Source: Cytophagales bacterium
GTDB lineage: Bacteria > Bacteroidota > Bacteroidia > Cytophagales > Cyclobacteriaceae
Direction of reading: 5' to 3'
Assembly: GCA_017303795.1 (NCBI GenBank)
Contig: JAFLBR010000006.1
Location: forward strand, 124,001 to 188,000
DNA length: 64,000 bases
In this document: in pieces, positions 34,626 through 49,655 of the stretch
Layout of the letters: every line of letters begins with the position of its first letter
How positions within the stretch are numbered: the stretch's first letter is position 1
Position numbers and translations under genes: made by a program
The notes under the pieces: model-generated
Seen by the model: only the letters and a program-made list of their open reading frames with translations
What the model was told of the DNA's origin: nothing
Databases searched by the model: none

Positions 34626-34651
34626 TAGCCAATTGTAAATACAAGACTGCA

Positions 34652-35224: not shown

Positions 35225-35238
35225 TATAGAGAAACAAC

Positions 35239-35339: not shown

Positions 35340-35429
35340 TTCCAGCACCGCGGACAATGACGACCAAGCCGACAAAGACTCGTTTCCGCAGACAAGAAAA
35401 AAATTAACGGGTGAAACTCTACTAATTTA

Positions 35430-35636
35430 AATTCTCCACGCGGACAAGTGAACGTTTCATTATGCAACGTGGGACTGAGAAACAATAAACAAAACTTGGG
35501 ACACGACTACGAATTAAGATTCGTACCATATCCGCCCACCGCACTGCAACCGTGGAGAGATTCTCGCCCACGCTTTTGGCACATGCCATAGCCGCGCAAA
35601 CCCACCGCGACACCAAAGCTATGGCAAGAGCCAAAT
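35430..35636 (+). repeat. About 205-bp direct repeat, copy 1, with hairpin copy 2
   Basis: Closely matches 38058-38267 in the same orientation. It contains ACGAATTAAGATTCGT, a 6-bp stem with a 4-nt loop, and the two-step hairpin at 35575-35635: TTTGGC, ACAT, GCCATAGC, 25-nt loop ending ACCAAA, GCTATGGC, AAGA, GCCAAA. The two copies bracket a three-gene block (35647-37812) plus another hairpin. From 35340 to 35430 nothing else is seen. Confidence 0.85.
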
Positions 35637-35646
35637 CTCCCGACCC

Positions 35647-36405
35647 TCAAATATCATCTATCTTTTCGCTAGTGGATTTTTTCTTCAACTGTCCCTTCGT
35701 AACTTTTAAGTCTTTGAAATATCCTATTGTTCCAATATCAACATACAGACCAACTCCACCTATTTTATTCTTGCCTAACATTTTGTCTACAATAAATGAA
35801 GAGTATTTCATGTCATTAATAAACATTTCAGCAGTTTCACCATTCACTTCAATTCTCATTTTTATCCATTCCTTCAACGCAACAGGTGCTGAACCTTCAT
35901 ACGACCCCGGAGGATAACTCTTTCTAAGAGTGTCAAACTTGGCATGTGGATATGAAATATACTGCACAGCATGATTTCTAAATAACTGATTATTGACTCT
36001 GCCAACTTTAGGTCTTACGTAAATACTTTCAAAGGCTGAATCGTCTTCTTTAATTCGAAAATACACTCCAATAAAGCCTGCAACGCCAGGGTACGGTGGT
36101 GGATTTTGAATCTGACTGTACATTTTCACTTCAATAGTTCCGTTCTCAAAGTCTTCCAAGCCGACCAGTCGAGCATAATGAGGTTCATCAACTGTTTTCT
36201 CAATATTATTTACGTCAAAAGGAAGAGCTTTCAAATCACGTTCTATCTTCAACACTTTCTTACCTTCAAACTCAATAATAGAACCGGTGACATTGTGAAG
36301 TTCGAAAGTTTGTCCTTTGAGAGTTAGTTTCTGTTTCTGACCTAATACTGAAAATGACATCAGCGAAGAGGCCGCAATAGTTACAATGATGAGTAGTGAT
36401 TTCAT
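35647..36405 (-). CDS. Secreted DUF1080/LamG-like protein
   Basis: 252 aa with a signal peptide (MKSLLIIVTIAASSLMSFSV). The rest is a jelly-roll-type beta-sandwich: FENGTIEVKMYSQIQ, GVAGFIGVYFRIKEDDS, EWIKMRIEVNGETAEMFIND and GGVGLYVDIGTIGYFKDLKV are the strand pattern of concanavalin-like DUF1080/LamG domains that bind or cleave sugars. No catalytic residues can be named. It is the last of three same-strand genes behind the Crp-family regulator gene and ends 11 bp from direct repeat copy 1. Confidence 0.72.
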   Translation of the reverse strand: MKSLLIIVTIAASSLMSFSVLGQKQKLTLKGQTFELHNVTGSIIEFEGKKVLKIERDLKALPFDVNNIEKTVDEPHYARLVGLEDFENGTIEVKMYSQIQNPPPYPGVAGFIGVYFRIKEDDSAFESIYVRPKVGRVNNQLFRNHAVQYISYPHAKFDTLRKSYPPGSYEGSAPVALKEWIKMRIEVNGETAEMFINDMKYSSFIVDKMLGKNKIGGVGLYVDIGTIGYFKDLKVTKGQLKKKSTSEKIDDI

Positions 36406-36441
36406 ATTGATAATTTTAGTGTTGTAATTTTCTGAAAACGG

Positions 36442-37095
36442 TTAGGCAATTTGTTTGAGTTCTGCTCTCGTAACTGGCTTGCCTAACGCACCAAATTCGT
36501 GCAATTCGCCAAACACTTCAATGCGAATGGACTGTTCAATGCCACCAATACGAACTGGCTCGAATCCGTTGTCTTTAATCAACCCTTCAATTTGTGAGTT
36601 GATGCTGTTATCATCCGTTGCATAAAACAGCACAACAGATTCAGGCTTTTGGAAGGCCGAGGATGCTAAAGAGCCAGCGCCTAACGTGCCGAGTGCCTTG
36701 ACAAGTTTAGCACCATTCGGAAGCAAGCTTGATATTACTTGTCCTGCAGATTCATCGGAACCAATAATCTTTGTAAATCCTCCTTTGCCATCAGGCGCAA
36801 TGGGATTAGACGGGTCAATAACAATTTTGCCTTGCAGTTCTGTTGCATACTTTACAAGCAGTTCCTGAATGCTACTGAACCACACGGCCAATACAACAAT
36901 TTCAGCTTCTTTAATGGCTGCAGCTACTTCAGCAGCTTTAGCAAGTCTTCCCAATTGCTGAGCAAGTGCTTTGGCGTCTTCAAATTTGTTGCTTGCGAGA
37001 ATGACTTCCCGGTTTCCTTTGACCAAGTTGGACGCGACCACCTTTCCGATGTTTCCCAAGCCGATTACGGCTACTTTTGGTTTGTTCGTTGACAT
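36442..37095 (-). CDS. NADPH-dependent F420-reductase-like / NAD(P)-binding protein
   Basis: 217 aa, cytosolic. The Rossmann motif VAVIGLGNIGKVVASNLVKG starts at residue 9, followed by EVILASNKFEDAKALAQQL. ADPs of this PF03807 group bind NADP(H) and reduce F420 or act as small ferric or imine reductases; Bacteroidota lack F420, so the real substrate is unknown. A gap of 108 bp separates it from the Crp-family gene upstream on the same strand, which may control it. Confidence 0.82.
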   Translation of the reverse strand: MSTNKPKVAVIGLGNIGKVVASNLVKGNREVILASNKFEDAKALAQQLGRLAKAAEVAAAIKEAEIVVLAVWFSSIQELLVKYATELQGKIVIDPSNPIAPDGKGGFTKIIGSDESAGQVISSLLPNGAKLVKALGTLGAGSLASSAFQKPESVVLFYATDDNSINSQIEGLIKDNGFEPVRIGGIEQSIRIEVFGELHEFGALGKPVTRAELKQIA

Positions 37096-37203
37096 ATACT
37101 TTGCTTTTAGTTGATGATTTGTTTTTGTTAAAGCAAAGCAACATCAAACGGACCGCACACACCAATGACATGGATTAAGAAAAAGTATTGACCTAGATTA
37201 AGG

Positions 37204-37812
37204 TTATTTTTCGCCTTTGGCCATCCGATTACGAATTCTACTCAAAAATTCAGGCGTAACCCCAAGATAAGAGGCGACTTGCACCTGCGACAATCTGTTG
37301 AGTAGGTGCGGATAGGTTTCTAAAAATGATTGATAACGTTCTTCAGCAGTGGAACTGAATAGTTGACCAATTCGCTCCTGTTGTTGCATAAAATGATTTT
37401 CTAGCAATACTCTAAAAATTCGGTCAAACTTTGGTGCCTTAACGTACAAATCAATTAGGTCATTATAGGCAATCCTTAAGACAACAGTATCTTCAAGGGC
37501 ATCAATGTCGAGGACAGACTTTGTCCTTTTATGAAAACTCGTTAGGTCAAGCATCCAATAGTTTTCGGTTGCAAACTGGAGAACATGATAGCCACCTTTT
37601 TCATCCGCTTTATACAGCCTAAGGCAACCACGAACGACAAAGTCAAAATATTCACAAACATCTCCATGCTGGAGAGCAAATTGTCTCTTCAAAAATAGGT
37701 GTGGCCTAAACTTCTCTTTGACTAAATCTTTCTCAGTCTGATTCAAAGGAATAAGCGTACTAAAATAATCAAGTAAAGGCTGACTCGAATCTGTTTTAGG
37801 ATTTTTATCCAT
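37204..37812 (-). CDS. Crp/Fnr-family transcriptional regulator
   Basis: 202 aa. The cyclic-nucleotide-binding-like barrel covers about 20-130 (KRQFALQHGDVCEYFDFVVR, GCLRLYKADEKGGYHVLQFA). The C-terminal winged helix has the recognition helix QVASYLGVTPEFLSRIRNRM at the end. There are no Fnr cysteines. Proteins of this type in Bacteroidota often sit beside one or two target genes, here the reductase-like gene and the secreted protein. Hairpin copy 3 lies 55 bp upstream of its start. Confidence 0.88.
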   Translation of the reverse strand: MDKNPKTDSSQPLLDYFSTLIPLNQTEKDLVKEKFRPHLFLKRQFALQHGDVCEYFDFVVRGCLRLYKADEKGGYHVLQFATENYWMLDLTSFHKRTKSVLDIDALEDTVVLRIAYNDLIDLYVKAPKFDRIFRVLLENHFMQQQERIGQLFSSTAEERYQSFLETYPHLLNRLSQVQVASYLGVTPEFLSRIRNRMAKGEK

Positions 37813-37866
37813 AGCGTTAATGCCTAATCAAAGATAGACAAGGATTGAGATTTTTTCACAAAAGCC

Positions 37867-37925
37867 GCACACACATTGGCTGGCCGCACTTGCAGCCCAC
37901 ATCCAAAGCCAGCCAATAAGTGTGC
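37867..37925 (+). repeat. Two-step hairpin repeat, copy 3
   Basis: GCACAC, ACAT, TGGCTGGC, 23-nt loop ending TCCAAA, GCCAGCCA, ATAA, GTGTGC. Both arms pair perfectly. The stem sequence differs from the other copies, yet the ACAT bulge, the CCAAA before the right arm and the arm lengths are kept. It stands upstream of the Crp-family gene. Between 37926 and 38057 nothing else is recognised. Confidence 0.8.
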
Positions 37926-38057
37926 TCAGCTTGTGCAATTGGACAAAGTAGAAATTCAAAAAAAATGCCCACCGCACCACTGACAATAATGAATTGAACA
38001 TTGACAGTGGACGAAAGAAACGACTTCGAATGCAGTGCGTTGACACCCTGCCAATTC

Positions 38058-38267
38058 AGATTCCCCACGCGGACACTTGAACGTTTTCTTAAGACAACGC
38101 GGGACTGAGAATCAAAAAATACAACTTGGGACACGGCTACGAATTAAGATTCGTGCCATATCCGCCCACCGCACTGCAACCGTGGAGAGATTCTCGCCCA
38201 CGCTTTTGGCACATGTCATAGCCGCGCAAACCCACCGCGACACCAAAGCTATGACAAGAGCCAAACC
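38058..38267 (+). repeat. About 205-bp direct repeat, copy 2, with hairpin copy 4
   Basis: Second copy of 35430-35636. Hairpin 38205-38265 reads TTTGGC, ACAT, GTCATAGC, 25-nt loop, GCTATGAC, AAGA, GCCAAA. Compared with copy 2, C-to-T in the left arm is matched by G-to-A in the right arm, so pairing is kept. From 38268 to 38333 nothing else is seen. Confidence 0.85.
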
Positions 38268-38333
38268 CACCCGCCAAAAAATCAGGACAAACCTTTAGAC
38301 GTTTAGATGGAAAATAAAACTTAGTAATGCGGA

Positions 38334-38762
38334 TTAGTACGGTTGATAATCTTTCGTTGTAGCTTTCAATGCTGGTTGAATTTCTGTCGGTAGAATGGGC
38401 ACACCCTTATTGCCCCACGAGTTTCGGATGTAGTTCAATACATCGGACACTTCATCATCATTCAAACTGAAGCCCGCCATTTCGCCATTATACTCTACCC
38501 CATTGATCTTCATCGGGCCACGCACACCTCGCAGAACAACTTTAACAAGTCTGTTCTTATCGTTGAGATAATCTGTTTTGGCTAATGGTGGGAAAACACC
38601 TTCCAGACCTTCACCCTCAGCCATGTGACACGACATGCATTGAGCTTCATAAATTGTCTTGCCTCGTTGCATACTTGCTTTCAAATCAAACGTTTGATAG
38701 AAAGAAGAAAGAACCAAGGTTGTTAATGATAAAGTAAAAATGAGGTGAATCTTTTTCATCAT
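38334..38762 (-). CDS. Periplasmic cytochrome c, single haem
   Basis: 142 aa from the ATG at 38762 (double ATG at 38762/38759). A longer frame would overlap the molybdenum subunit. Signal peptide MKKIHLIFTLSLTTLVLSSF, then the haem motif CMSCH and a distal methionine in NGEMAGF or PMKING. The fold is a class I c-type domain (TIYEAQCMSCHMAEGEG, VSDVLNYIRNSWGN). As the last gene of the nine-gene operon it probably takes electrons from the Mo/2Fe-2S enzyme encoded just upstream. Confidence 0.9.
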   Translation of the reverse strand: MMKKIHLIFTLSLTTLVLSSFYQTFDLKASMQRGKTIYEAQCMSCHMAEGEGLEGVFPPLAKTDYLNDKNRLVKVVLRGVRGPMKINGVEYNGEMAGFSLNDDEVSDVLNYIRNSWGNKGVPILPTEIQPALKATTKDYQPY

Positions 38763-38796
38763 TAGATTATTAAATCTTGATATCGCATTAACATTG

Positions 38797-41061
38797 TTAA
38801 GACTTATCGCTTTTATCATTCAGATCATTTATAAAAGGCTGATTGTAGAAACGTTTGCCTGTATTTTTGTACAAAGCATTGGCCACCGCTCCAAAAACTG
38901 GAGGAAAGGGTGGTTCTCCCAAACCAGTAGGATCAATTTCACTTTCCACAAAATAAACGTCAATTTTTTGGGGTGCTTCGCGGTTTCGAATCATTCTATA
39001 GCGATTAAAATTGTTTTGCTCTGAAACACCTTCTTTATGGACTAAACCTCCATAGAAAGCATTTCCAATTCCATCCACTACCGCGCCTTGCACCATATTA
39101 ATAGCGGCATCAGGATTAATAACCACACCACAATCAACAGCACTAAACACCCGCTCCACATAAGGTTGACCGTTCTTGGTTACAATATCCACCACATGTG
39201 CGGCATAAGAAGCATGGCAGAAGTAAGCTGCCACTCCACGATTGTACTTTTTATTTTCTGGATTATTCCAGCCCGATTTTTCTTTCAGCAACGTTAATAC
39301 ACCTGCATATCTACCCGCATCATAATCATTATTTTTACCAACCGGGTTTTCTTTTGCCCGTTTCAAAAGTTCGAGTCTCAAATCAATCGGATCTTTGCCC
39401 ATCAGTTCAGCTAGTTCATCGAGAAAAGATTGTTCAGCCGCTGCATTAAAATTGGATCGTGGTGCACGGAATGCACCAATCGTTATGTTGGATGGAATTG
39501 TCCAACCTTCGGCAAGGTAGTTATCAACGGCTCCAGCTGGAAAGCGGTTTGCATGAACCGGGTGTTCGGGTATTCCACCACCTTTTACATGAAATGCAAT
39601 CAGATTTTTATTGGTATCTAATGCTGCGCGATAAGTTGCCGTATACATGGGGCGATAAATGCCATAGGTCATATCATCTTCGCGACTATAAACCAATTTA
39701 ACAGGCGCTTTTACTTTTCTGGAAATAAGGGCTGCTTCCACAAGATAATGTCCGTATGCACGGAGGCCAAAACCTCCACCCATACGCGTCATTTGTATCT
39801 CAATTTTATCAGCAGACAGATTTAGAATTTTTGCTAGCGTGGGTTCAATCCAACCCGGTGCCTGATGCGGCCCTACCAGCAAAGCCTTTTCATCGGTAAC
39901 ATGCGCTATAAAATTCATAGGCTCCATACAGTTGTGCGCCAAAAATGGAGCCGTGTAGGTGCGCTCTAAAATCTGCGCAGCATTCGCAAAAGCAGTTTCG
40001 GGATCACCATCTTTTCGTAATTCTTGAGCGGGCTTCTTTGCGTACTCCGCCATTTTTTCCAACTGCGTACTGGTGCTTTCAAGTCCTGCGGGAATAACCA
40101 CTTCCGTTTTTCCCCGAAAACCTCCAATGGTTTCTTTTGTTTCACCGATCGGTTCCCATGTTGCTTTTAGTTTTTTACGGGCATTCATAACCTCCCAGGT
40201 GGTGTTGCCCACCACGACTAGCAAATCATTAAATGTTCGGGTATCAAAACCAGCCTGTTCAAAACCGTCCGGATACAATTTCAGTGCAAACACATCTTTT
40301 ATTCCCGGCATCTTCAGAGCTTCAGCCGCATCAAAAGATTTAAGTTTCTTGCCAAATGCTGGTGGATGTTCAATCATGGCAATCAGCATTCCTTCGTAGA
40401 AATGATCTAATGCAAAAAGTGGTTTACCCGTAACAATTTTCAAACCCTCCACATTCTTACTTGAGTTTCCCACAACGTTGAAACTCTTTACATCCTTTAG
40501 CTTAATTCCTTTCGGTATTGGATTGGCAGCAGCCTTCGATGCAAAGTCACCATACTTACCAGACTTACCACTTTTTTCATGGTAGAGCATTCCGGCCTTT
40601 GTGGTAACTTCTTCAACCGGGACACTCCATGTTTGTGCCGCGGCATCTCTCAGCATTTGACGAGCAGCCGCTCCTGCCTCGCGCAGTGGTTTCCAATACA
40701 TTCTCACAGAATTACTTCCGCCTGTAAATTGAGGCCCTAATTTCGTATTGTCATGCGGCCCCATTTCAACAATCACCTTTTTCCAATCCACATCCAATTC
40801 TTCTGCGACAATCATTGGGAGTGAGGTCATCACATTCTGTCCAAATTCTGGATTAGGGTTGAGTATCTGAATAAGATTATCGGAAGTAATTTTGATATAG
40901 CCCGTTAATTCATTCCATTGTTCAGCCGGCAGCGTTTCGCTCACAGTATCATCAAGCGTGTATTTCGCTAAACCGCTAAAACTAATCATCAGCCCACCGC
41001 TGGCCAATACGGACGATTTTAAAAATGATCGTCTGCTTTGTGATGTGTTAATCTTTTCCAT
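38797..41061 (-). CDS. Molybdopterin-binding hydroxylase large subunit (xanthine dehydrogenase family, IorB-like)
   Basis: 754 aa. The N-terminus has a twin-arginine signal (SQSRRSFLKSSVLASGGLMI), so the enzyme is exported folded, with cofactor. FGQNVMTSLPMIVAEEL near 74 and the Mo-pterin regions MTRMGGGFGLRAYGHYLVEA and TIGAFRAPRSN are typical of the single-chain IorB type that works with a small 2Fe-2S subunit. It hydroxylates aldehydes or N-heteroaromatics with water as oxygen donor. The small subunit gene lies 41 bp upstream and the cytochrome c gene follows, giving a complete periplasmic electron route. Confidence 0.92.
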   Translation of the reverse strand: MEKINTSQSRRSFLKSSVLASGGLMISFSGLAKYTLDDTVSETLPAEQWNELTGYIKITSDNLIQILNPNPEFGQNVMTSLPMIVAEELDVDWKKVIVEMGPHDNTKLGPQFTGGSNSVRMYWKPLREAGAAARQMLRDAAAQTWSVPVEEVTTKAGMLYHEKSGKSGKYGDFASKAAANPIPKGIKLKDVKSFNVVGNSSKNVEGLKIVTGKPLFALDHFYEGMLIAMIEHPPAFGKKLKSFDAAEALKMPGIKDVFALKLYPDGFEQAGFDTRTFNDLLVVVGNTTWEVMNARKKLKATWEPIGETKETIGGFRGKTEVVIPAGLESTSTQLEKMAEYAKKPAQELRKDGDPETAFANAAQILERTYTAPFLAHNCMEPMNFIAHVTDEKALLVGPHQAPGWIEPTLAKILNLSADKIEIQMTRMGGGFGLRAYGHYLVEAALISRKVKAPVKLVYSREDDMTYGIYRPMYTATYRAALDTNKNLIAFHVKGGGIPEHPVHANRFPAGAVDNYLAEGWTIPSNITIGAFRAPRSNFNAAAEQSFLDELAELMGKDPIDLRLELLKRAKENPVGKNNDYDAGRYAGVLTLLKEKSGWNNPENKKYNRGVAAYFCHASYAAHVVDIVTKNGQPYVERVFSAVDCGVVINPDAAINMVQGAVVDGIGNAFYGGLVHKEGVSEQNNFNRYRMIRNREAPQKIDVYFVESEIDPTGLGEPPFPPVFGAVANALYKNTGKRFYNQPFINDLNDKSDKS

Positions 41062-41102
41062 TTTCTAATTATTTGAAATGATGGTTAATGATTTCGATCA
41101 AT

Positions 41103-41561
41103 TTATTTCTGTCCAGCTGCCTCTTTGATAGCTTCTCTGATGCGCAGATAAGTACCACACCGGCAGATGTTGCCTGACATCGCAGTCTCAATTTGTGCAT
41201 CAGTAGGATTTGGATTAGATTTTAACAATGCCGCTGCAGACATTATCTGTCCTGTCTGGCAATAACCGCACTGTGCCACATCATGTTCTAGCCATGCCTT
41301 CTGCACTGGGTGTTCTCCATTTTCAGAAAGTCCTTCAATGGTGGTAATCTCCTTATTTTGCGCAGCGGAAACAGGCAGCGAGCAAGAACGCACGGCTGTT
41401 CCATTTACATGGATTGTACATGCACCACATTGTGCAATACCGCAACCATACTTAGTCCCGACCAGTCTGAGATGTTCCCGCAATACCCAAAGCACTGGTG
41501 TTTTTGGATCGACATCAACGGTTTGTTTTTTTCCGTTGATGGTGAGATTGATTGTTGCCAT
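41103..41561 (-). CDS. 2Fe-2S small subunit of the molybdenum hydroxylase (IorA-like)
   Basis: 152 aa from the ATG at 41561; a TTG three codons earlier is less likely. Plant-type ferredoxin domain with cysteines in [17 protein letters not shown] and a fourth in RSC, then the second cluster domain with CGYCQTGQI and CRCGTY. No signal peptide is present, as expected for a subunit carried out by its Tat-exported partner. It passes electrons from the Mo site to the cytochrome. Confidence 0.93.
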
Positions 41562-41621
41562 TGATATCAATTTTTAATTGTCAAAAGTTACGAAAATGAT
41601 GCGTCAATTAAATTACGAAAT

Positions 41622-43232
41622 TCAAATACCGCGCGATTGCAGTTGCTCACGCTTCTTAAATGCTTTTTCAATCACATTAAATCTCGCTTTACGCGGATCA
41701 GGCTTAGCAACTACTTTTCCATCCAAATCAATATCCAAAATCTCTTCCTTCTGAATATCGTATTGCGGCCATATAGGCACACCTTTACCGTTGGGGTTTC
41801 CAGTCTTTGCGAAGTTTGTCCAATACGTATTCATGATCCTAGCAAGCTCTTTTTCTTCTGGCGTTGCCTCAGCAGGTGCGCCCCATCGTGCATTGAGCGT
41901 GTTGAACACGAAAGAAATATCGGAGCCATGACCCGCACCATAACGTGCTCTTTCTCTTGCCGTGGCGGGAACATAACCGAATTGAAAGATATAGGCCGAC
42001 TCACGTTTAGCGACAAATGCTCTTGCTGTCATTCGTGCGGGTTCGCCCCAGACCCAATCTGTATTAAATTTTGTCTGTACTTCTGCGAATTCTTTATTCC
42101 CATCAGGATCGAAAGCAGCTTTGGCCTCTGCCTCGTTTTCGCCAAATAATGCAAACAGAGCTTCCTTTGAAGTGGCATTGCTAACAAAGGTACCACCTAT
42201 TTCTGCACTACAATTTCCAATCATAAGCGGAACCTTTTCAAATCTTCCCGACTTGTAAGCACTTTCTGCGGTTTCAACTACCAACTTGCCATCGAGAATT
42301 GGGCCCGAATAAATTCGAACGCCCGTGCTATCGCTTTCCAGACCTGCATCTACAATTTTTTCTGCGCTAAGCGAGCGAAGCTTAGTGAGTGCATCAGCAT
42401 CAGTACTCGCGATTCTATGTTTACGTGCAAAGTTTACTCCAATTGTCTCCGCAGAAACTGCATATAATGGATCAGCATTTCCTTTATTAATCGGTCTGCC
42501 AGTAAGAACGCCATCACGCCCGCCACTGGAATGGCCGATGGCTTTATGAAAAAGTCCCTTAGCTGAGGGTATAGTTAAAAGTGAATGAACCGCTACGCCA
42601 CCAGCTGAAAAACCGAAGATCGTTACGTTATTCGGATCGCCACCAAAGGCAGCAATGTTTTCCTTAACCCACTTCAGTGCTGCGATTTGATCCATAAAGG
42701 CGTAACTACCTTTCGATTCTTCCGGATGCTCTTTGCTTAATGCAGGAAATGCAAAATGACCGAGGCGACCAAGCCTATAATTAATCGTAACAAGAACGAC
42801 ACCTTGTTTGGCAAAGGCAGTTCCGGCCGAGCCGGGGCCAGAGCCGCTACCGCCTGTAAAACCACCACCATGAATCCAAAACATCACGGGCAATTTTGAT
42901 TTCTTAGTAGCGGTAGCTGATGTCCATACATTTAGAAAAAGACAATCTTCGGATTGTTTTGTAGTAGAACCTGGCCACGCTCTTTGCGGACAGTCCGCAC
43001 AATCCATGGTCGCATCAAGAACTTCTTTCCAAGGCGTTACCGGTTGTGGTGGCCGCCAACGATACTCGCCAACAGGCGGTGCAGCGTAAGGAATACCTTT
43101 GAAGTAAGAAACATCACCTTCGGTCACTCCACGCACCTTACCGGATGCCGTTTGAACTTCAGGAGCTTTCGGTTGGGCATTGGTTAAACTTGCAATCAGA
43201 ACGAGTAAAAGTAAAGAGAATAGATTTTTCAT
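41622..43232 (-). CDS. Carboxylesterase type B, secreted
   Basis: 536 aa with a signal peptide ([20 protein letters not shown]). Oxyanion HGGGF at 121-125, EDCLFLNVW at 95-103, Ser209 in GFSAGG; the late [12 protein letters not shown] carries the histidine. It is a fourth type B esterase in the window, far from the three at 24-29 kb and in a different operon. It probably frees an alcohol or acid for the oxidative enzymes of this operon. Confidence 0.92.
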
Positions 43233-43250
43233 ATTGGATAACTGAATTTG

Positions 43251-43700
43251 TTAATGTTTAATAGTATGGGTATCACGAACGCTACTGAACGTGAGCGCCA
43301 ATAACTTCCACCCTTCCGACTGCTTTTTATAAACTTCCGTGACTGTAAATTCGGTGGTTACCTCGCTGCCTCGAACAATGGCGAGTAAAGTAATCCGGTT
43401 CCAAACGATTGCTGTATTGTCAATCATTTCAATGGCAACATCATGCACCGTTGCTTTCTTGTACCAAATGCTACCCGTTTTAATAATCTCAAGCTCTTCA
43501 TCTTTTTTCCAAGTTCCGCTCATGTGAACAAACTTTGACTTGTCGTGAAAGAGTGGCGCCAGCTTCTCCACATTTTTATCGGCCATCCATTGCCATTTCT
43601 CTTTAGAGAGTGCAATGACTTCCTGTTCGGCTGAATTTTGCGCGAACGAAAACTGTACGCATATAAAGAATACTACTACTCCAAAAAATGTTATTTTCAT
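43251..43700 (-). CDS. Secreted SnoaL/NTF2-like protein (DUF4440)
   Basis: 149 aa. Signal peptide MKITFFGVVVFFICVQFSFA, then a cone-shaped NTF2 fold: EQEVIALSKEKWQWMADKNV, LAPLFHDKSKFVHMSGTWK, TVHDVAIEMIDNTAIVWNRI, EVYKKQSEGWKLLALTFSSV. DUF4440 proteins serve as small isomerase-like or binding domains; no catalytic residues can be named. It lies inside the operon with gaps of 18 bp and 6 bp. Confidence 0.85.
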   Translation of the reverse strand: MKITFFGVVVFFICVQFSFAQNSAEQEVIALSKEKWQWMADKNVEKLAPLFHDKSKFVHMSGTWKKDEELEIIKTGSIWYKKATVHDVAIEMIDNTAIVWNRITLLAIVRGSEVTTEFTVTEVYKKQSEGWKLLALTFSSVRDTHTIKH

Positions 43701-43706
43701 ATCTTC

Positions 43707-44774
43707 TCAGTTTATTGTTTGTTTCAAGTTCTTTGCAAAAAACTCTTTGAGTTTATTCATTGCCTGATTTACGTATTCAGGGACATAGTAGGTTTGAATA
43801 TGTGTTGCACCCGGAATGAGATACAATTCTTTCTCTTTCGTTCCTGTGGCTACATTAAATGCTTGGTCTGTCATGTAGTATGTATCGGCCTTGCTTCCTG
43901 CAATCATTAACAATGGTTGATTGATTAAGTCCATGTTGGTGGCTGCATCGAATTCCATTAAGTCAAGCAAACTGCTTGTTGTGTATTTAAATGTTGAGTT
44001 CGGATGGGCATGCGTTCTGTTGTAGTAATAATGACCCTCACGGTACAAATCAAACGGCATCTTGTCGGCCATTTCATCCGTAATGGTTGCGGTAGCTGTG
44101 TACAGCACTTCGCCTTTTGAAGCTTCCAATGCTCTGGCTTCAGTGGCTTGCCTTAACCGATCTTGAATAGTTGCCGCACCCGAATTCATAAATCCATTGC
44201 GCCTGACCACACCTGAATTAAACATGCTGAGCGTAGCTACAACCCTAAAACGTTTATCGGTTTGCGCAGCTTTCAATGCGTAGCCACCACCGCCACAAAT
44301 TCCTAAAAGCACCAATTGATTAGCATCCACCCCTTTATACTGTGTGATATAATCAGCCATGCCTCGAATATCTTCAATGCGAAACGCTGGCTTATCTACA
44401 TTACGCGGTTGGCCACCACTGGCTCCCTGATAAGAAGCATCTGCTGCAATGGCGATGTAACCTGATTCAGCTAAACGTTGGGCGTACAAACCCGCCACTT
44501 GCTCCTTTACACCACCATTTGGATGCGCCACCACCACACTGGGGTAATGTTTTGAAGGATCATAATTAGCTGGTGTGTAAACATTGGCAGCAATGTCGAT
44601 GCCGTTTAGTTTATACGTTACCGGATGAATGTTTATCTGACCCACAACATTTTTTGCAATGGCATTCTCATATACCAACCCAAATGGATTGGCTTGTTTG
44701 GTTTGAGCTAATGAGAGGATACTTGCTGACATACACAACACAATTAAAAAATGTTTTCTGCTTTCATTGTTCAT
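43707..44774 (-). CDS. Secreted alpha/beta hydrolase with cysteine nucleophile (dienelactone-hydrolase-like)
   Basis: 355 aa with an N-terminal signal (KHFLIVLCMSASILSLAQ). HPNGG near 84-88 is the oxyanion loop, and the nucleophile elbow reads GICGGGG with Cys160 in place of serine, as in dienelactone hydrolases. The aspartate (IAGSKADTYY) and histidine (PGATHIQTYY) follow near the C-terminus. A lactone or activated ester substrate is likely. The pairing with a carboxymuconolactone-decarboxylase-family gene in the same operon is suggestive of lactone chemistry, though both are exported here. Confidence 0.85.
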   Translation of the reverse strand: MNNESRKHFLIVLCMSASILSLAQTKQANPFGLVYENAIAKNVVGQINIHPVTYKLNGIDIAANVYTPANYDPSKHYPSVVVAHPNGGVKEQVAGLYAQRLAESGYIAIAADASYQGASGGQPRNVDKPAFRIEDIRGMADYITQYKGVDANQLVLLGICGGGGYALKAAQTDKRFRVVATLSMFNSGVVRRNGFMNSGAATIQDRLRQATEARALEASKGEVLYTATATITDEMADKMPFDLYREGHYYYNRTHAHPNSTFKYTTSSLLDLMEFDAATNMDLINQPLLMIAGSKADTYYMTDQAFNVATGTKEKELYLIPGATHIQTYYVPEYVNQAMNKLKEFFAKNLKQTIN

Positions 44775-44798
44775 AATCTATTCGCAGTTAAAGTTGAT

Positions 44799-45866
44799 TC
44801 ATTTATCCAGACCCTTTTCTTGAAGCCACTTCGACATCAGATCAGCTATTTGGACATTATTCAAGTCAGAGAATGGGAAGTGAGTATTTCCTTTGATTCC
44901 AATTTCGGGTAGGTGAACAACCCTCACATCACCTCCGGCTGCATTCAATGCATCGCGCCATTTTCTGGCCATCTCCAAACGTGCGCGCCAGCCATCAATG
45001 CCGGGATTGGGATCGGGCTTCGATGGTATATTATCACCGTAATAAATGATGATGGGTATTTTGGTGAGTTTTAAAAAGTCTTCTTTAGATATACCATTGG
45101 CTACCAACGGGCCAGCGGAACTTTCTATTTGCTGCGGCACTTCTCCTTCGGGAAAAACAAAACCTGAACCCGGTTCATAGCTTACAATCGCGCGAATATT
45201 CTGATTCTTAATGGCCGTAAGCCAATCCATACCACCCGAATGTGAGTGTGTAACTAATATTGTCGACCCAAGTTTGGTGGATAAAGCTGATACCGCTTCA
45301 ACATTCACATTGATGTCAATTGGTCCAATGTTTGGAACCATAGAACGAAAGTATTGATTGAGTGCTTCCGGATCTTTTGAAAACTGAACATCTGGAAAAT
45401 AGTTTGGCCATACACCAACTCGAAATGTACCGAACCACATCTGCTCATCTGGTGTAGGTGATATGGTGGCCTCTGCTGTACTTCTTCCTGCATTTCCGCG
45501 TCTCGGTTGATCAATCAGGTAAACACTAAAGTTTCTTCTTAAAAAAATGTTTTGAAATCCTTCGCGACCATCGGGTGTTGTTTCCCATGTTTTTGAAAAC
45601 TGACCGATGCCATGCCAGAATACAAGTGGCAACTTTTTAGATTTTTTGGGTACCTGATAAAAAACGTAGGCATGATCTCCACGAAAGGTTTGGCCTTCTG
45701 GTGTGCGTTTGATAGGATCGAATGTTCCCGGATTCGTAATCATGGTACCACCAACTGCAAAACTGCCTTGATCCTGAATTACGATTGGCTTTTTCTGTGC
45801 ATAGGTTTGAGTTAACATCATAGTCAAGAGTACTATAGCGAACGTATTTTTATTTTTCATTTCCAT
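44799..45866 (-). CDS. Secreted alpha/beta hydrolase (esterase)
   Basis: 355 aa from ATG 45866; an upstream GTG is less likely and a second ATG two codons later is possible. Signal peptide MKNKNTFAIVLLTMMLTQTY. VFWHGIGQFSKTWETT is the oxyanion region and VTHSHSGGMDWL the nucleophile elbow. The aspartate is probably in IYYGDNIPS and the histidine in IKGNTHFPF. These features resemble secreted PF12697-type esterases that act on small esters. It sits in the operon with 20-25 bp gaps on both sides. Confidence 0.85.
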   Translation of the reverse strand: MEMKNKNTFAIVLLTMMLTQTYAQKKPIVIQDQGSFAVGGTMITNPGTFDPIKRTPEGQTFRGDHAYVFYQVPKKSKKLPLVFWHGIGQFSKTWETTPDGREGFQNIFLRRNFSVYLIDQPRRGNAGRSTAEATISPTPDEQMWFGTFRVGVWPNYFPDVQFSKDPEALNQYFRSMVPNIGPIDINVNVEAVSALSTKLGSTILVTHSHSGGMDWLTAIKNQNIRAIVSYEPGSGFVFPEGEVPQQIESSAGPLVANGISKEDFLKLTKIPIIIYYGDNIPSKPDPNPGIDGWRARLEMARKWRDALNAAGGDVRVVHLPEIGIKGNTHFPFSDLNNVQIADLMSKWLQEKGLDK

Positions 45867-45899
45867 ACGGTTTAACACTTATTATAATTTGCGCCAACA

Positions 45900-46385
45900 T
45901 TACTTGTTGTAAACTTCGTCAGTTACTTCTTCCAACCACACCGTTTCACCGAGGTGTCTGTTGGTTACTGCTACCTGAACGAAATGCTTATCCGAACTTG
46001 CACCATGCCAATGCGGAACATTGGGTGGACATTTTATTACATCACCTTTGTGAAGTATCTTTTTGGATTGACCTTTCTCTTGATAGTATCCAACCCCATC
46101 AATCACCAGTAATATTTGTCCGCCCGGATGAAGATGCCATTTAGTGCGGGCTCCTGGTTCAAACGTTACATTGCCGATTGAGGTAGGATTAATACTATCT
46201 CCAGCGATGAACATTTTCAAATACACGGTGCCTTTGAAATTTTCGCTGGTAACTTTCTCACCTTGTGGAAAGACCATATTCGTACTTAGATTATCCTTAG
46301 TGTCCACTTTCTGTTGACCACAGCTGTTGAACGCCACGACAAAGGCCAGACAACCAATCATCACTGTTATTTTATTTTTCATCAT
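45900..46385 (-). CDS. Cupin-domain lipoprotein
   Basis: 161 aa. The lipoprotein signal ends in AFNSC. The single cupin barrel has motif 1 with metal ligands in TKWHLHPGGQILLVIDGVGY and motif 2 in GDVIKCPPNVPHWHG. The His/Glu set suits a bound divalent metal, so an isomerase, decarboxylase or quercetinase-like activity is possible. It follows the carboxymuconolactone decarboxylase-family gene by 20 bp; the two are a common pair in this phylum. Confidence 0.87.
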   Translation of the reverse strand: MMKNKITVMIGCLAFVVAFNSCGQQKVDTKDNLSTNMVFPQGEKVTSENFKGTVYLKMFIAGDSINPTSIGNVTFEPGARTKWHLHPGGQILLVIDGVGYYQEKGQSKKILHKGDVIKCPPNVPHWHGASSDKHFVQVAVTNRHLGETVWLEEVTDEVYNK

Positions 46386-46405
46386 ACATATTGATTTACC
46401 TGCTG

Positions 46406-47134
46406 CTACTTTTGTTGCCTACCTTTTAAAACTTCTGTTAACACGGTCTTGGCTGCATTAGCTTTTTCTTTTCCAACAGTTGATTCAATCACAGTGATAA
46501 AATGCGTTAACTGTTGGGGAGTTAACCCTACATTAAGACTGATCGACAAATGTCCACGTAGCATCGGTTCCACACCACCGATTGAACTCAAAACTGAAAT
46601 CGTGACTAATTCACGCTGAGCATAGTTCAACACATCTCGTTCAAAAATATCGGCAAACAAATGCTCTTTTAAGAAAGTATCTATTACCGGAGCAAATGCC
46701 GAATACCCTGTAAGCGGCTCATCTTGTTTTGTTTTGGTAAGCTCACCCAAGATGGCTTTACCTCGTTCATACTTACTACCATCTTTGACAATGGCTGAAG
46801 CCTCATTCCCTCGACTATCGTTGATTCCTCTAGCCTTACGTTCCTCAAGCACTTCCATAAAAGTTTGCAGACCTCTGATACTCCTTGGAAATCCACAATA
46901 AGCATAGAGATGAACAAGAGATTCCTTAATCTCACTAACAGTTAAACCAGCATCCAAACCTTCATTCAGAGATTTTTTCAGATTGGTCAAGTCGCCAACT
47001 GACGTTAAAGCCGAAATCTTTACCGTGTTTTGTTGTTGGACACTTAACCCTTCATTAGACTGTGCATATGTTTCTGGCATAGTTGAACTGATCAGGATAA
47101 TAAGGCTTAAAATGGATTGTTTGAAAAATCTCAT
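46406..47134 (-). CDS. Secreted carboxymuconolactone decarboxylase-family protein (two AhpD-like domains)
   Basis: 242 aa with a signal peptide (SILSLIILISSTMPETYAQ). Two AhpD-like helical domains lie at about 30-115 (LYAYCGFPRSIRGLQTFMEV) and 150-240 (NYAQRELVTISVLSSIGGVE). The second has no CxxC pair, so peroxidase activity is unlikely; decarboxylase-like chemistry is possible. It is the first gene of the nine-gene operon and is divergent from the AraC regulator, a setting often seen for this family. Confidence 0.87.
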   Translation of the reverse strand: MRFFKQSILSLIILISSTMPETYAQSNEGLSVQQQNTVKISALTSVGDLTNLKKSLNEGLDAGLTVSEIKESLVHLYAYCGFPRSIRGLQTFMEVLEERKARGINDSRGNEASAIVKDGSKYERGKAILGELTKTKQDEPLTGYSAFAPVIDTFLKEHLFADIFERDVLNYAQRELVTISVLSSIGGVEPMLRGHLSISLNVGLTPQQLTHFITVIESTVGKEKANAAKTVLTEVLKGRQQK

Positions 47135-47314
47135 GAGTTATTGGTTTCCCTGTGCTGTCCTTTTTCTTATTTCTACCCTGCAAAGATGCAGTCAACTCAT
47201 ATAAGGAGACGTATACAAATTACTGGTTTACCTACCAAATTCACTGAATGAGAACTCTTGGTGTTAAAATGAACATTGAAACACCTAATTTTGAAGAGAA
47301 AGAAAATCCAAGCT
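47135..47314. promoter_or_regulatory. Divergent promoter region between the nine-gene operon and its AraC regulator
   Basis: 180 bp with no gene separate the two start codons. The middle is AT-rich (near 47200-47290) and would hold both promoters and the AraC site. I see no strong inverted repeat, which is normal for AraC operators. Confidence 0.55.
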
Positions 47315-48217
47315 ATGGAAGAGATATTGAAATTTGATACGGTCGGCCAGTATAACACATTTAACAGAAATGAAACACTACACCCGCTTGTTAGTGTTGT
47401 TGATCTTTCAAAAGCTGCTCCGCGACAGCTCAGAAAAATGAGCTACGGATTTTATGTTGTGTTCTTGAAGGAGATTAAATGTGGCGATCTGAAATACGGC
47501 ATCAGTAACTACGACTACGAAGAAGGTACACTCGTATTTTTAGCTCCCGGCCAAGTGATCGGTTCCACTGGGGAACAATATTATCAGCCGCAAGGTCTCG
47601 CATTGGTATTTCACGCTGACTTTATACGCGGGACGTCACTCGGTCGTCACATGACCGACTATTCTTTTTTTTCCTACACCACCAATGAAGCTCTGCACTT
47701 GTCCGAGCGTGAGCGGCAAATCATCATGGATTGTTTCGGTAAAATTAAGTATGAATTGGAACATGCAGTGGACAAACACAGCAAGACCTTGATAGCTTCC
47801 AACATTGAACTGCTGCTTAACTATTGTGTTCGATTTTATGATCGGCAATTCATCACCCGCGACAATGCGAACCAAGGAATTCTAGAACGATTCGAAACAT
47901 TGTTGAATGATTTCTTCGCTTCTGACAAACCACACGAAGTTGGACTACCTTCAGTTGCCTACTGCGCTAATGAACTCAATCTTTCAGCCAACTACTTTGG
48001 TGACCTGATAAAAAAGGAAACCGGAAAATCGGCAAGCGAATACATTCACTTGAAATTGATTGACGTGGCGAAAGAAAGGATTTTTGATGCGAAAAAATCC
48101 GTTAGTGAAATTGCTTACGAGCTGGGATTCAAGTATCCGCAACACTTCTCACGAGTATTTAAGCAACATGTTGGAATGAGCCCTCAAGAATACAGAAGTT
48201 CCAGTAACCTGAATTAA
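47315..48217 (+). CDS. AraC-family transcriptional regulator
   Basis: 300 aa from ATG 47315; a TTG 13 codons upstream is less likely. The N-terminal part (about 1-170) is a cupin-like sensor. The C-terminal double helix-turn-helix has CANELNLSANYFGDLIKKET and SEIAYELGFKYPQHFSRVFK, ending GMSPQEYR. The divergent arrangement suggests it activates the carboxymuconolactone-decarboxylase-to-cytochrome operon. Hairpin copy 5 follows 29 bp after the stop. Confidence 0.92.
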   Translation: MEEILKFDTVGQYNTFNRNETLHPLVSVVDLSKAAPRQLRKMSYGFYVVFLKEIKCGDLKYGISNYDYEEGTLVFLAPGQVIGSTGEQYYQPQGLALVFHADFIRGTSLGRHMTDYSFFSYTTNEALHLSERERQIIMDCFGKIKYELEHAVDKHSKTLIASNIELLLNYCVRFYDRQFITRDNANQGILERFETLLNDFFASDKPHEVGLPSVAYCANELNLSANYFGDLIKKETGKSASEYIHLKLIDVAKERIFDAKKSVSEIAYELGFKYPQHFSRVFKQHVGMSPQEYRSSSNLN

Positions 48218-48246
48218 AAGTCTATCATATTACCATTCAGCCGTTC

Positions 48247-48311
48247 GGTGGCACACATGCCAAAGCCACACAAATCACCGCGCGAACCAAAGCTTTGGCA
48301 AGAGTGCCACC
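48247..48311 (+). repeat. Two-step hairpin repeat, copy 5
   Basis: GGTGGCAC, ACAT, GCCAAAGC, 25-nt loop ending ACCAAA, GCTTTGGC, AAGA, GTGCCACC. Both arms pair perfectly. Compared with copies 2 and 4, arm sequences have changed in pairs while ACAT, AAGA and ACCAAA are unchanged. A downstream stretch CCCCACGCACAACTTGAG resembles part of the 205-bp repeats. Confidence 0.83.
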
Positions 48312-48461
48312 CCTCGCACCACGGGGTCAGAGTAGTAAGAGTTTAGAGTAAGCCGATAGTACAGTGTAACGGTTGCCCCACGCACAACTTGAGTTTCACA
48401 AAATAATTCGGTTGACAACTTGACAATAAAATGGTGGACAATTTACTAATGACGGGAAGAA

Positions 48462-48604
48462 GGGCACAGGCGCTAACAAAATGTTTCTGCAATGGTGCCG
48501 TGACGAGTTGGTTTAAAGTTTTATCTTCGTTCAACGTTTTCGTTTCGTGGGACAGGACGCGGCTTCGGAAAGGCACCACTGCAGAAACACCAACGTTGTA
48601 GGTA
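48462..48604 (+). repeat. attC-like site C
   Basis: GGCGCTAAC (48469-48477), stem 1 TGTTTCTGC (48482-48490), AA, stem 2 TGGTGCC (48493-48499), 72-nt loop, GGCACCA (48572-48578), CT, GCAGAAACA (48581-48589), CCAAC, GTTGTAGGTA (48595-48604). It has the same two-box plan as site B, with a long variable terminal structure. The start GGCGCTAAC complements GTTAGCGCC at the end of site B, 13 kb away. Confidence 0.68.
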
Positions 48605-48620
48605 ATTATTTTTGACAGAG

Positions 48621-49553
48621 ATGGAGTACAATTTCATAAATCAAATTTTTGGTGACGATGACTACGAAGATATATTCGAAGGGTTTGATTTTTCGATTTT
48701 AGATGATCCTGACTTTAAAGAAGATTCAGTTAGAGAAGAGATTGTTTATCCCATTTTAAAAGCCCTTGGCTACAGTGCTAGTGGAGAAAATAAGATAATA
48801 AGAAGTAAAGGTTTAAAGCATCCATTTTACTATTTCGGGACAAAAAAGTATAATGTGAACATTATCCCGGATTACACTTGTGAAGTTCATGGTAAAAAAC
48901 TTTGGATACTTGATGCAAAGCGGCCATCGGAGAATATTGCTTTCGATAAAAATGTATTTCAAGCTTATAGTTATGCAATGCACCCGGAGATTAGATGCGA
49001 ACTGTATTGCTTATGCAACGGCAAAGAGTTTTCAGTCTTTTCTGTGAAAGAACACAATGCCCTTCTGACTTTTAAGATAGCTGAATTAGCCGATAATTGG
49101 AAAAGGCTAAGAACTCTTCTTAATCCTGAGTTCATAGCTAAGCCGCATATAAGAGACTTCTCGCTAGACTTGGGACTTTTTATTCTTAAGATTGGAGGCC
49201 TTGATAGCGTCACAGAGATCATTGAATTCAAAGTCGAAGATCTTAATGACATTACAAAAATTGAAGAGAATCTATATTGCATTAATGATGTTTTCACATT
49301 TGTAGGTATGGAAGACCAACGATTTATGGGGACATTTGATTTTAATAAGAAACTATATAAACAACTATTGCAGATACTAAGTAAAGACGCGAAAGAAATT
49401 ATTGAGAAATCACTAAGCCGACAACCTTTCAAGTACAATGAAGTGAAAGCACCCAAGAGTCCTTTTTCAATTCATGCAAGACTTGGACGAAACATAATAA
49501 CAAATGAGAATGAGAGTTACCTTCCGTTTCAGGTAGAGAAGTTTACTGCATAA
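48621..49553 (+). CDS. HsdR N-terminal-type (PD-(D/E)xK-like) nuclease-domain protein, cassette-borne
   Basis: 310 aa from ATG 48621; a TTG at 48612 is less likely. The region 35-130 resembles the N-terminal nuclease domain of type I restriction R subunits (HSDR_N): DSVREEIVYPILKALGYSAS, then PDYTCEVHGKKLWILDAKRP, giving the D...(D)xK core, then NVFQAYSYAMHPEI. There is no helicase domain, so it is a stand-alone nuclease-like protein. The C-terminal half is unrecognised. It is AT-rich compared with the flanking operons and is the only gene between attC-like sites C and D, in the orientation of a cassette gene. A defence function is inferred. Confidence 0.75.
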   Translation: MEYNFINQIFGDDDYEDIFEGFDFSILDDPDFKEDSVREEIVYPILKALGYSASGENKIIRSKGLKHPFYYFGTKKYNVNIIPDYTCEVHGKKLWILDAKRPSENIAFDKNVFQAYSYAMHPEIRCELYCLCNGKEFSVFSVKEHNALLTFKIAELADNWKRLRTLLNPEFIAKPHIRDFSLDLGLFILKIGGLDSVTEIIEFKVEDLNDITKIEENLYCINDVFTFVGMEDQRFMGTFDFNKKLYKQLLQILSKDAKEIIEKSLSRQPFKYNEVKAPKSPFSIHARLGRNIITNENESYLPFQVEKFTA

Positions 49554-49559
49554 AAAAAC

Positions 49560-49655
49560 TACCTACAACAACGTCTATAAAACATGCCCGCACGGTTGAT
49601 TTTAATATATTATTTTGGAGTGCCGGCACGTTTTATATACTGGCGTTGGCGGTGT
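49560..49655 (+). repeat. attC-like site D
   Basis: TACCTACAAC (49560-49569), stem 1 TATAAAAC (49576-49583), AT, stem 2 GCCCGCAC (49586-49593, one mismatch), 26-nt loop, GTGCCGGC (49620-49627), AC, GTTTTATA (49630-49637), TACTGGC, GTTGGCGG (49645-49652). The first 10 nt are the exact complement of GTTGTAGGTA at 48595-48604. It may also end transcription of the convergent uronate operon. Confidence 0.68.

What the first reader, a model, noticed from the sequence alone, without database searches (positions are those of the whole stretch)
48462..49655. Second attC-like cassette carrying a stand-alone HsdR-N nuclease-like gene
Seen: GTTGTAGGTA (48595-48604) is the exact complement of TACCTACAAC (49560-49569). 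Sites C and D share the same plan as site B: AAC, about 4-6 nt, 8-9 bp stem, 2-4 nt spacer, 7-9 bp stem, loop, mirrored to GTT. The one gene inside runs toward the right-hand site, as in integron cassettes, and has the PD...DAK core of type I R-subunit N-domains. Two independent cassettes with the same 10-nt end rule are hard to put down to chance.
Basis: partly seen in the sequence, partly recalled or inferred. Interest (0 to 1): 0.82.

Follow-up and report, generated by a model that had tools for sequence, protein, structure and literature searches.

The report
Gene cassette of an unusual integron
This gene sits in a mobile DNA cassette of the integron type, part of a cassette system found in many genomes of one class of bacteria that seems to run on a different kind of recombining enzyme, lacking a part thought essential for integrons.

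Summary
Sites C and D (48469-48603, 49561-49653) belong to a family with 43 matches (E<=0.01) in this genome and matches in 107 of 295 sampled class genomes. Of 126 adjacent site pairs, 94 obey the end rule over >=9 nt, against 1.8% of non-adjacent pairs. Stems covary. So 48596-49645 is an integron-type cassette.

The surprise is the enzyme. In 12 of 12 testable loci the first cassette begins 6-130 bp after a tyrosine recombinase gene, at an attI-like junction. The 19 such recombinases aligned all lack the IntI additional domain, I2; no IntI over the cut-off was found here or in 38 relatives. I2 docks extrahelical bases of attC, and these sites lack them: an asymmetry of >=2 unpaired bases occurs in 16 of 19 sites at canonical IntI loci, but in 3 of 128 here. 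I read this as a second, I2-less integron-like system. Activity is not shown, and 11 of 32 site-bearing relatives showed no such recombinase at E<=1e-40. Ten full-text searches turned up no report of it.

The parts
34577..34630 (+). Site A: attI-like hairpin (perfect inverted repeat with TATATA, then GTT at 34622) at the left border of the first cassette of this cluster
   Evidence: Weak model match, 20.5 bits, E=0.034; hairpin; resembles, by eye, the hairpins before the first cassette beside recombinase genes
34623..35324 (+). Cassette 1 (first of the cluster), ends GTTATAGCCA / TGGCTATAAC, gene 34652-35224 of unknown function (190 aa)
   Evidence: 10-nt end rule; no Pfam family at E<=0.001
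35240..35332 (+). Site B, attC-like hairpin site
   Evidence: 81.7 bits (seed of the model)
35325..48595 (.). Stretch of 13.3 kb between sites B and C, whose ends also obey the rule (GTTAGCGCC / GGCGCTAAC); possibly one giant or composite cassette, possibly coincidence of a common end type
   Evidence: 9-nt match; GTTAGCGCC is among the commonest core types: 8 of 163 right cores, 6 of the left ones
48460..48612 (+). Site C with its outer segments, left border of the cassette in question (core model match 48469-48603)
   Evidence: 119.9 bits (seed of the model)
48595..48604 (+). R' core GTTGTAGGTA; crossover expected between G48595 and T48596
   Evidence: the cut position is by analogy with attC (PMC2727003, passages)
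48596..49645 (+). The cassette as it would be excised
   Evidence: End rule over 10 nt and resumption after a mismatch at position 11
48621..49553 (+). Cassette gene: 310-aa PD-(D/E)xK nuclease-like protein, similar to the N-terminal nuclease part of type I R and type IIG restriction enzymes
   Evidence: HSDR_N E=1.8e-4, below cut-off; PADLOC REase_MTase_IIG E=8.3e-8, residues 25-145; PD..DAK conserved in the 59% identical homolog
49560..49569 (+). R'' core TACCTACAAC, complementary to 48595-48604, with which it would pair in the excised circle
49561..49653 (+). Site D, attC-like hairpin site, right border of the cassette
   Evidence: 66.2 bits (seed of the model)

Best explanation
48596-49645 is a gene cassette of an integron-type system. 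Shown: a genome-wide family of hairpin sites that recurs across the class, cassette ends complementary to each other, a longest ORF that runs forward in most small cassettes, arrays starting at an attI-like junction beside a tyrosine recombinase gene, recombinases without the IntI additional domain (I2), and sites without the extrahelical bases that I2 docks. Inferred: when one strand (probably the bottom one) becomes single-stranded, the site folds into two inverted half-sites of about 18 bp separated by an unpaired spacer of 4-5 nt; the Xer-like recombinase binds this dif-like structure and exchanges strands at GTT; excision gives a circle whose site joins R'' of its own right end to R' of its left end; circles are captured at attI or at other hairpins. 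A conserved A.C mismatch at position 11 of the R box, which becomes a G.T wobble on the bottom strand, would mark the strand instead of extrahelical bases. The cargo here is probably a restriction-type (defence) nuclease.
For: Sites: 43 matches E<=0.01 in own genome; 23 of 25 genomes of the genus and 32 of 39 genomes in all, own included; 107 of 295 class genomes at E<=1e-5 (strict filters, few candidates scored, so a lower bound). End rule: 101/126 adjacent pairs >=7 nt, 99 >=8, 94 >=9; control 5.9%, 3.3%, 1.8% of 25,474 non-adjacent combinations. Folding: 94.7% of pair cells standard vs 69.4% shuffled, covariation 0.576 vs 0.119. Mismatch: position 11 never matches in 99 pairs (R' always A; opposite base C in 85), while positions 12-15 match in 85-89%. 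Bottom strand of the excised-form site more stable in 81 of 99, median 2.4 kcal/mol; random stretches 59 of 148. Recombinase: in 12 of 12 loci with recombinase and a listed site downstream on its strand, the best-matching cassette start lies 6-130 bp after the stop codon, with 9-10 nt shared with its own right site; second-best start 4-5 nt. I2 absent in 19 of 19; IntI forms a separate clade, 100/100. 0 of 39 genomes with IntI over the cut-off. Across 295 class genomes, sites and recombinase occur together: both 79, sites only 28, recombinase only 53, neither 135, odds ratio 7.2 (not corrected for kinship). Box I, KG..DR, HxLRHS, LGH or MGH and TTExY present in all 19. Unpaired-base asymmetry >=2: 16/19 sites at canonical IntI loci, 3/60 at class-wide loci of the new recombinase, 0/68 in 13 genus arrays. 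92 cassettes under 3 kb: longest ORF forward 75, reverse 4, none of 60 aa 13.
Against: No recombination was observed. 25 of 126 adjacent pairs do not match over 7 nt (some span a missed or dropped site). Sites without the enzyme: 11 of 32 site-bearing genomes in the relatives sample have no homolog at E<=1e-40, among them the at least 97% complete G017, G018, G026 (35 sites), G030, G032 and G038; in the class sample 28 of 107 have none at E<=1e-60. Their recombinase may be more diverged, or another enzyme may serve. In the class-wide test without the covariance model, 7 of 15 loci with enough sequence show no linked first cassette; the opposite-strand control is 36/300, not near zero (partly, I think, because the sites are palindromic), shuffled 4/300. 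The loci were picked by hand: 8 because one search lists sites on the same contig (5 of 8 positive), the other 7 without that knowledge gave 3 of 7. In one search sites on the recombinase's strand alone were considered. The cassette lies on a contig (C21) without a tyrosine-recombinase match, and two candidate enzymes exist (C16, C24). The five relatives with the closest uxaC (75-79%) have no model match within about 1.5 kb of it, but their flanks have diverged, so no clean empty site was seen. In the L box the mismatch is A.C in 72 of 109 sites and A-T in 37. 51 of 163 sites show some gap in a gapped arm alignment, mostly one base. Site C in its integrated form folds slightly better on the top strand.
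Confidence: 0.8

Rival explanations
1. An ordinary integron cassette: the sites are normal attC sites moved by a canonical IntI acting from elsewhere or lost from this genome (a CALIN-like remnant).
For: Same overall plan (AAC/GTT, paired R and L boxes, unpaired spacer, variable loop) and same 9-10 nt end rule as published attC sites (PMC2727003, passages). Canonical IntI over the cut-off occurs in 105 of 395 sampled genomes of the phylum, and 11 of 32 site-bearing relatives show no I2-less homolog at E<=1e-40.
Against: No IntI over the cut-off in own genome or in the 39 genomes including it; of the 108 phylum genomes listed with an IntI match, one is labelled same class and the rest same phylum. 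A different recombinase sits at the array start in 12 of 12 testable loci. No extrahelical asymmetry. The model finds no site around two canonical IntI loci of the phylum.
Confidence: 0.13
2. Repeats of another kind (transcription terminators or REP/BIME-like hairpins) that happen to lie between genes.
For: Strong hairpins between genes; 'type 2' hairpins of unknown role lie near several sites.
Against: Terminators or REPs do not predict that the start of one interval is complementary to its own end (101/126 vs 5.9%), nor arrays starting at a recombinase.
Confidence: 0.02
3. A fossil: an integron-type cassette once, but sites C and D are now inert.
For: Outlying position without a recombinase match on the contig; site D is the weaker of the two (66.2 bits); its excised-form fold is weaker (-23.9 kcal/mol) than the family mean (-38.5).
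Against: Cores of both sites and the full 10-nt end match are intact; the ORF is intact.
Confidence: 0.25

Closest known systems
Integrons with IntI and attC (mobile and chromosomal)
   Same: Cassette arrays, forward ORF in most small cassettes, hairpin sites bounded by AAC and GTT, R''/R' complementarity of 9-11 nt, paired L boxes, unpaired central spacer, attI beside the recombinase gene, probable use of a folded strand
   Different: Recombinase lacks the IntI additional domain (I2), groups outside IntI and stands in the same direction as the cassettes; sites lack extrahelical bases and have instead a conserved mismatch at position 11 with further pairing beyond it
XerCD/dif and IMEX (phage CTX-phi attP hairpin)
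   Same: Xer recombinase without I2 acting on a folded phage strand that mimics a dif site (PMC7790495, one passage); as a mechanism this is the nearest precedent
   Different: No cassette arrays (recalled); here each cassette has its own core sequence and its own copy of the site
NCBIfam NF040815 'site-specific tyrosine recombinase/integron integrase'
   Same: Best NCBIfam model for both own recombinases tested (211.5 and 212.7 bits)
   Different: Below its curated cut-off of 220 bits
Integron-like subgroup of simple tyrosine recombinases (PMC8138268)
   Different: It calls the insertion essential for integron function; the passages seen describe no I2-less cassette arrays

Membership tests
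Integron (IntI/attC/attI) | IntI recombinase with the additional I2 domain | tested here: not met
   0 of 39 genomes over the TIGR02249 cut-off; domain absent in 19 of 19 array recombinases and present in the ten IntI rows printed beside them; also absent against PDB 2A3V
Integron (IntI/attC/attI) | attC R''/R' boxes AAC/GTT, complementary over 7-11 nt in the excised form | tested here: met
   101 of 126 adjacent pairs >=7 nt, 94 >=9
Integron (IntI/attC/attI) | attC extrahelical bases on the R''-L'' arm | tested here: not met
   Unpaired-base asymmetry >=2 in 3 of 60 and 0 of 68 sites, against 16 of 19 at canonical IntI loci. The window was not in that call; in the 163 sites, C and D included, two bases on that arm and none on the other occur in 2
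Integron (IntI/attC/attI) | Paired L boxes, unpaired central spacer, variable terminal loop | tested here: met
   Covariation over 149 distinct sites; spacer 4/5 nt the commonest, 78 of 163; loop 2-72 nt in the window
Integron (IntI/attC/attI) | attI beside the recombinase gene, where the array begins | tested here: met
   12 of 12 loci that have both parts; 8 of 20 loci examined had no listed downstream site
Integron (IntI/attC/attI) | Cassettes with a forward ORF | tested here: met
   92 cassettes under 3 kb: longest ORF forward 75, reverse 4, none of 60 aa 13
Integron (IntI/attC/attI) | Integrase-dependent excision and insertion | not testable with these tools
   Needs an experiment
Xer/IMEX recombination | Two inverted half-sites around a short central region | tested here: inconclusive
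   R and L arms of about 18 nt around a 4-5 nt spacer; a mismatch at position 11 in the R box and, by eye in site C, at the same place in the L box. Reading them as half-sites is inference
Xer/IMEX recombination | Recombinase is the host's XerC/XerD | tested here: not met
   Both array-type recombinases of this genome score far below the XerC and XerD cut-offs; a 307-aa recombinase that I take for a Xer lies elsewhere (C18)
HSDR_N nuclease family (PF04313) | Score over Pfam's cut-off and PD-(D/E)xK core | tested here: inconclusive
   21.9 bits against 25.1; PD..DAK present

The most novel reading that the evidence does not exclude
A second integron lineage, spread over a whole bacterial class, does what integrons do with a Xer-like recombinase that lacks the I2 helix, on hairpin sites that have a conserved mismatch instead of extrahelical bases. 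It would be either a living picture of the pre-I2 ancestor of integrons or an independent invention of cassette capture by folded single-strand DNA.
Probability: 0.6. Interest if true: 0.93.

Novelty: new variant of a known kind. Interest (0 to 1): 0.86.

Why it matters
Published work holds that integron integrases became able to recombine folded single-strand DNA by acquiring I2, which docks extrahelical bases and impedes the second strand exchange (PMC7790495, PMC4792948: passages), and the additional domain is used to define IntI (PMC7784347, PMC9668308: passages). A cassette system across a class in which both I2 and the extrahelical bases are missing makes that scenario directly testable. 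It would also mean that searches built on IntI and attC models miss a cassette reservoir: IntegronFinder 2.0 reports one complete integron in Bacteroidetes proper (PMC9024848, passage). The two cassettes beside the C16 recombinase of this genome carry defence-type genes by profile match.

Tried and rejected
Rfam scan of the window: nothing at gathering scores. ARAGORN: no tRNA. A first alignment with the two C16 sites (A1) was dropped for the model because their outer stems are longer. PDB search with the cassette protein: only weak matches to inteins and helicases, best E=0.18. Structure prediction of that protein: switched off. Strain comparison at uxaC: no cassette in the five closest loci, but no alignable empty site. 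Terminator/REP reading rejected for the family. The end-rule control printed (24,806 combinations; 6.2, 3.7, 2.1%) had not taken the adjacent pairs out; one search does so and is the one used. First class-wide control windows (28 of 345) overlapped real arrays and were replaced by opposite-strand and shuffled controls.

Rows dropped: of 201 model matches, 177 were taken (150 in A3 plus 27 typed by coordinate); 24 were left out (cut at an end, weak, or reverse-strand echoes of palindromic sites). One duplicate (L019) was removed, giving 176; 13 of these had no AAC or no GTT within tolerance, giving 163. The truncated recombinase of L135 was left out of the 19 aligned. Tree: two of 60 sequences left out for length. 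An earlier count said 13 attI loci; the output gives 12, which is used here.

Full report
What is in the sequence. The two 10-mers are exact complements at the stated places, and the hairpins of sites C and D are there. The ORF between them, ATG at 48621 to stop 49553, runs toward site D and carries a PD..DAK core. Its only Pfam match at E<=0.001 is HSDR_N, below the curated cut-off; in PADLOC residues 25-145 match a type IIG restriction enzyme.

A family of sites. Seven sites of this genome were aligned (A2) and a covariance model R1 was built with the paired arms. It finds 43 matches at E<=0.01 in the genome (44 at E<=1; 150 of 1508 candidates scored), among them 13 on one strand at C7:110114-126122 and clusters at contig ends of C12, C18, C20 and C24. 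Sites B, C and D were seeds of the model, so their own scores prove nothing; the other matches do. In 39 genomes (own included) 32 have matches at E<=0.01, in the genus 23 of 25. In an even sample of the class, with stricter filters and few candidates scored, 107 of 295 genomes and 68 of 155 genera have matches at E<=1e-5.

The end rule. In 126 adjacent same-strand pairs, the first bases of the interval (GTTnnnnnn) are complementary to the bases at its right-hand site (nnnnnnAAC) over >=7 nt in 101, >=8 in 99 and >=9 in 94; among 25,474 non-adjacent combinations the fractions are 5.9%, 3.3% and 1.8%. Core sequences differ between cassettes, so it is pairing that is conserved. In the 99 good pairs the complementarity continues to about 17 nt with one constant exception: position 11 never matches (A in R' in 99 of 99; the opposite base is C in 85), while positions 12-15 match in 85-89%. 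The window pair has 10 nt, the mismatch, then further pairing. The excised circle of each such cassette would have its own paired R box, as published for attC, where 9-11 consecutive nt are reported (PMC2727003, passages).

Folding. On 149 distinct sites 94.7% of cells in the 18 pairs are standard pairs (shuffled 69.4%), the covariation score is 0.576 (shuffled 0.119), and slid structures fall to 33-40% paired. The alignment was fitted to the structure, which favours it, but the contrast is large. With DNA energies the bottom strand of the excised-form site is more stable in 81 of 99, median 2.4 kcal/mol; random genomic stretches give 59 of 148. The likely reason is that A.C on the top strand is G.T on the bottom strand (inference). 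Site C in its integrated form is an exception, and in the L box the mismatch is A.C in 72 of 109 sites, A-T in 37.

The recombinase. The genome has six Pfam tyrosine-recombinase matches. One, C16:39338-40366 (343 aa), is followed after 95 bp by a cassette start whose core matches its own right-hand site over 9 nt. In the relatives the same holds: of 20 loci with a homolog, 12 have a listed downstream site on the recombinase's strand, and in all 12 the best-matching cassette start lies 6-130 bp after the recombinase stop, with a match of 9-10 nt against 4-5 nt for the second-best start. A hairpin with TATA-like sequence often precedes that GTT (by eye). Several of the other eight loci lie at contig ends. 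Site A in the window, left of the first cassette of its cluster, looks like such an attI. None of the recombinases is a canonical IntI: 0 of 39 genomes have a match over the TIGR02249 cut-off, and in the alignment the stretch that carries the IntI additional domain is missing from 19 of 19, as it is against PDB 2A3V. The 30 IntI rows form one clade with 100/100 support; the array recombinases lie with same-family proteins in another (91/98). The root and the sister relation are not resolved, and two outgroup rows have very long branches. The catalytic motifs are present in all 19. Canonical IntI is common elsewhere in the phylum: 105 of 395 sampled genomes, but of the 108 genomes listed with a match one is labelled same class and the rest same phylum.

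Extrahelical bases. In canonical attC sites two or three bases of one arm have no partner (PMC2727003, passages), and the I2 helix docks them (PMC7790495, passages). One procedure was applied to three sets: 32 loci of canonical IntI from the same phylum gave 19 sites (in 15 loci), with an asymmetry of at least 2 unpaired bases in 16; 20 class-wide loci of the new recombinase gave 60 sites, 3 of them so; 13 array loci of the genus gave 68 sites, none so. So the missing protein part and the missing DNA feature go together. R1 finds nothing around two canonical IntI loci, though it was not built for them.

How general. The recombinase family (E<=1e-60) occurs in 132 of 295 class genomes and 82 of 155 genera. 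Sites and recombinase go together: both in 79, sites only 28, recombinase only 53, neither 135 (odds ratio 7.2, kinship not corrected). In the nearer sample 11 of 32 site-bearing genomes have no homolog at E<=1e-40, six of them at least 97% complete, one (G026) with 35 sites; this I cannot explain beyond a diverged or different enzyme. For 20 loci of other genera a search that does not use the covariance model was run: 15 had more than 1.2 kb after the stop codon, and 8 of these 15 have a cassette start within 300 bp that matches its own hairpin-bearing site over 8 nt; controls 36 of 300 on the opposite strand and 4 of 300 shuffled. The loci were picked by hand, 8 because one search lists sites on their contig (5 of 8 positive), 7 without (3 of 7). 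A named example is the plasmid of Chryseobacterium sp. SNU WT5 (NZ_CP041688.1): a 60% identical recombinase with six same-strand model matches downstream (one at E=6.7e-9, five weak at 0.005-0.2).

The cassette in its place. The window holds site A, cassette 1 (34623-35324), site B, a 13.3-kb stretch whose ends also obey the rule, site C, the cassette in question, and site D. The 13.3-kb stretch may be a giant or composite cassette, but its end type GTTAGCGCC is one of the commonest, so coincidence is possible. Cassettes beside the C16 recombinase carry a PDC-S26-like gene and a 6.7-kb operon of a cytosine methyltransferase with MzaB-, MzaC- and MzaD-like proteins; the nuclease-like gene here fits such a defence cargo (inference). 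In 58 genus genomes searched with UxaC, the five closest loci have no model match within about 1.5 kb and no such cassette next to uxaC, but no alignable empty site either.

Prior work. Ten full-text searches gave no paper that, from its listing or the passages I read, describes I2-less cassette arrays. I read abstract or passages, not whole papers, of PMC2426708, PMC9024848, PMC9668308, PMC8618304, PMC7784347, PMC4792948, PMC2727003, PMC8138268 and PMC7790495; the rest I saw as listings. Preprints and most subscription papers are not in the library.

Verdict. The finding is a real integron-type cassette. Its wider meaning, a second integron-like system without I2, is well supported by anatomy and untested by experiment.

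Noticed in passing
L015:4498-12334 (G000:C16): The two cassettes directly after the recombinase carry a PDC-S26-like gene and a 6.7-kb operon of a cytosine methyltransferase with MzaB-, MzaC- and MzaD-like proteins: a multi-gene defence-type system as a single cassette.
   Followed up: partly
window 35575-35635, 38205-38265, 48247-48311, 37867-37925: A second kind of hairpin (TTTGGCACATGCCATAGC..25 nt..GCTATGGCAAGAGCCAAA and similar), without AAC/GTT borders, recurs some 100-330 bp after the GTT of several sites, and also lies before site C; its role is unknown.
   Followed up: partly
window 35440-35640 and 38069-38265: A 200-bp direct repeat, 92% identical, brackets three minus-strand ORFs inside the 13.3-kb B-C stretch; a third long copy lies at C12:444198-444390.
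   Followed up: no
L020:3850-4500 (G000:C12): A CRISPR-like array of about 30-nt repeats (ATTTCAATTCCACATTGGTGCGATTAACAG) starts about 1 kb after an attC-like site and next to what looks like a type I methyltransferase fragment (both by eye).
   Followed up: no
L182:19296-23078 (Chryseobacterium plasmid NZ_CP041688.1): An IS110-family transposase gene and a group II intron maturase gene lie in the array next to two sites whose left AAC core was not found. Some IS110 elements and group IIC introns are known to target attC sites (recalled), so these sites may be read as attC by other elements too.
   Followed up: no
L014:2710-3945 (Flavipsychrobacter MAG): The one homolog that one search returned for the cassette gene lies outside any such site, shortly after a tRNA-like fragment (by eye), perhaps in an island.
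   Followed up: no
G028:C1 (unnamed same-order genome): Eleven recombinases of the same family at E<=1e-40 in one 9-Mb genome, nine of them near-identical in score (39-40% identity to the query), as if this branch spreads as a transposon.
   Followed up: no
G026 (unnamed same-order genome): 35 model matches but no homolog of the array recombinase at E<=1e-40: which enzyme serves its sites is unknown.
   Followed up: no
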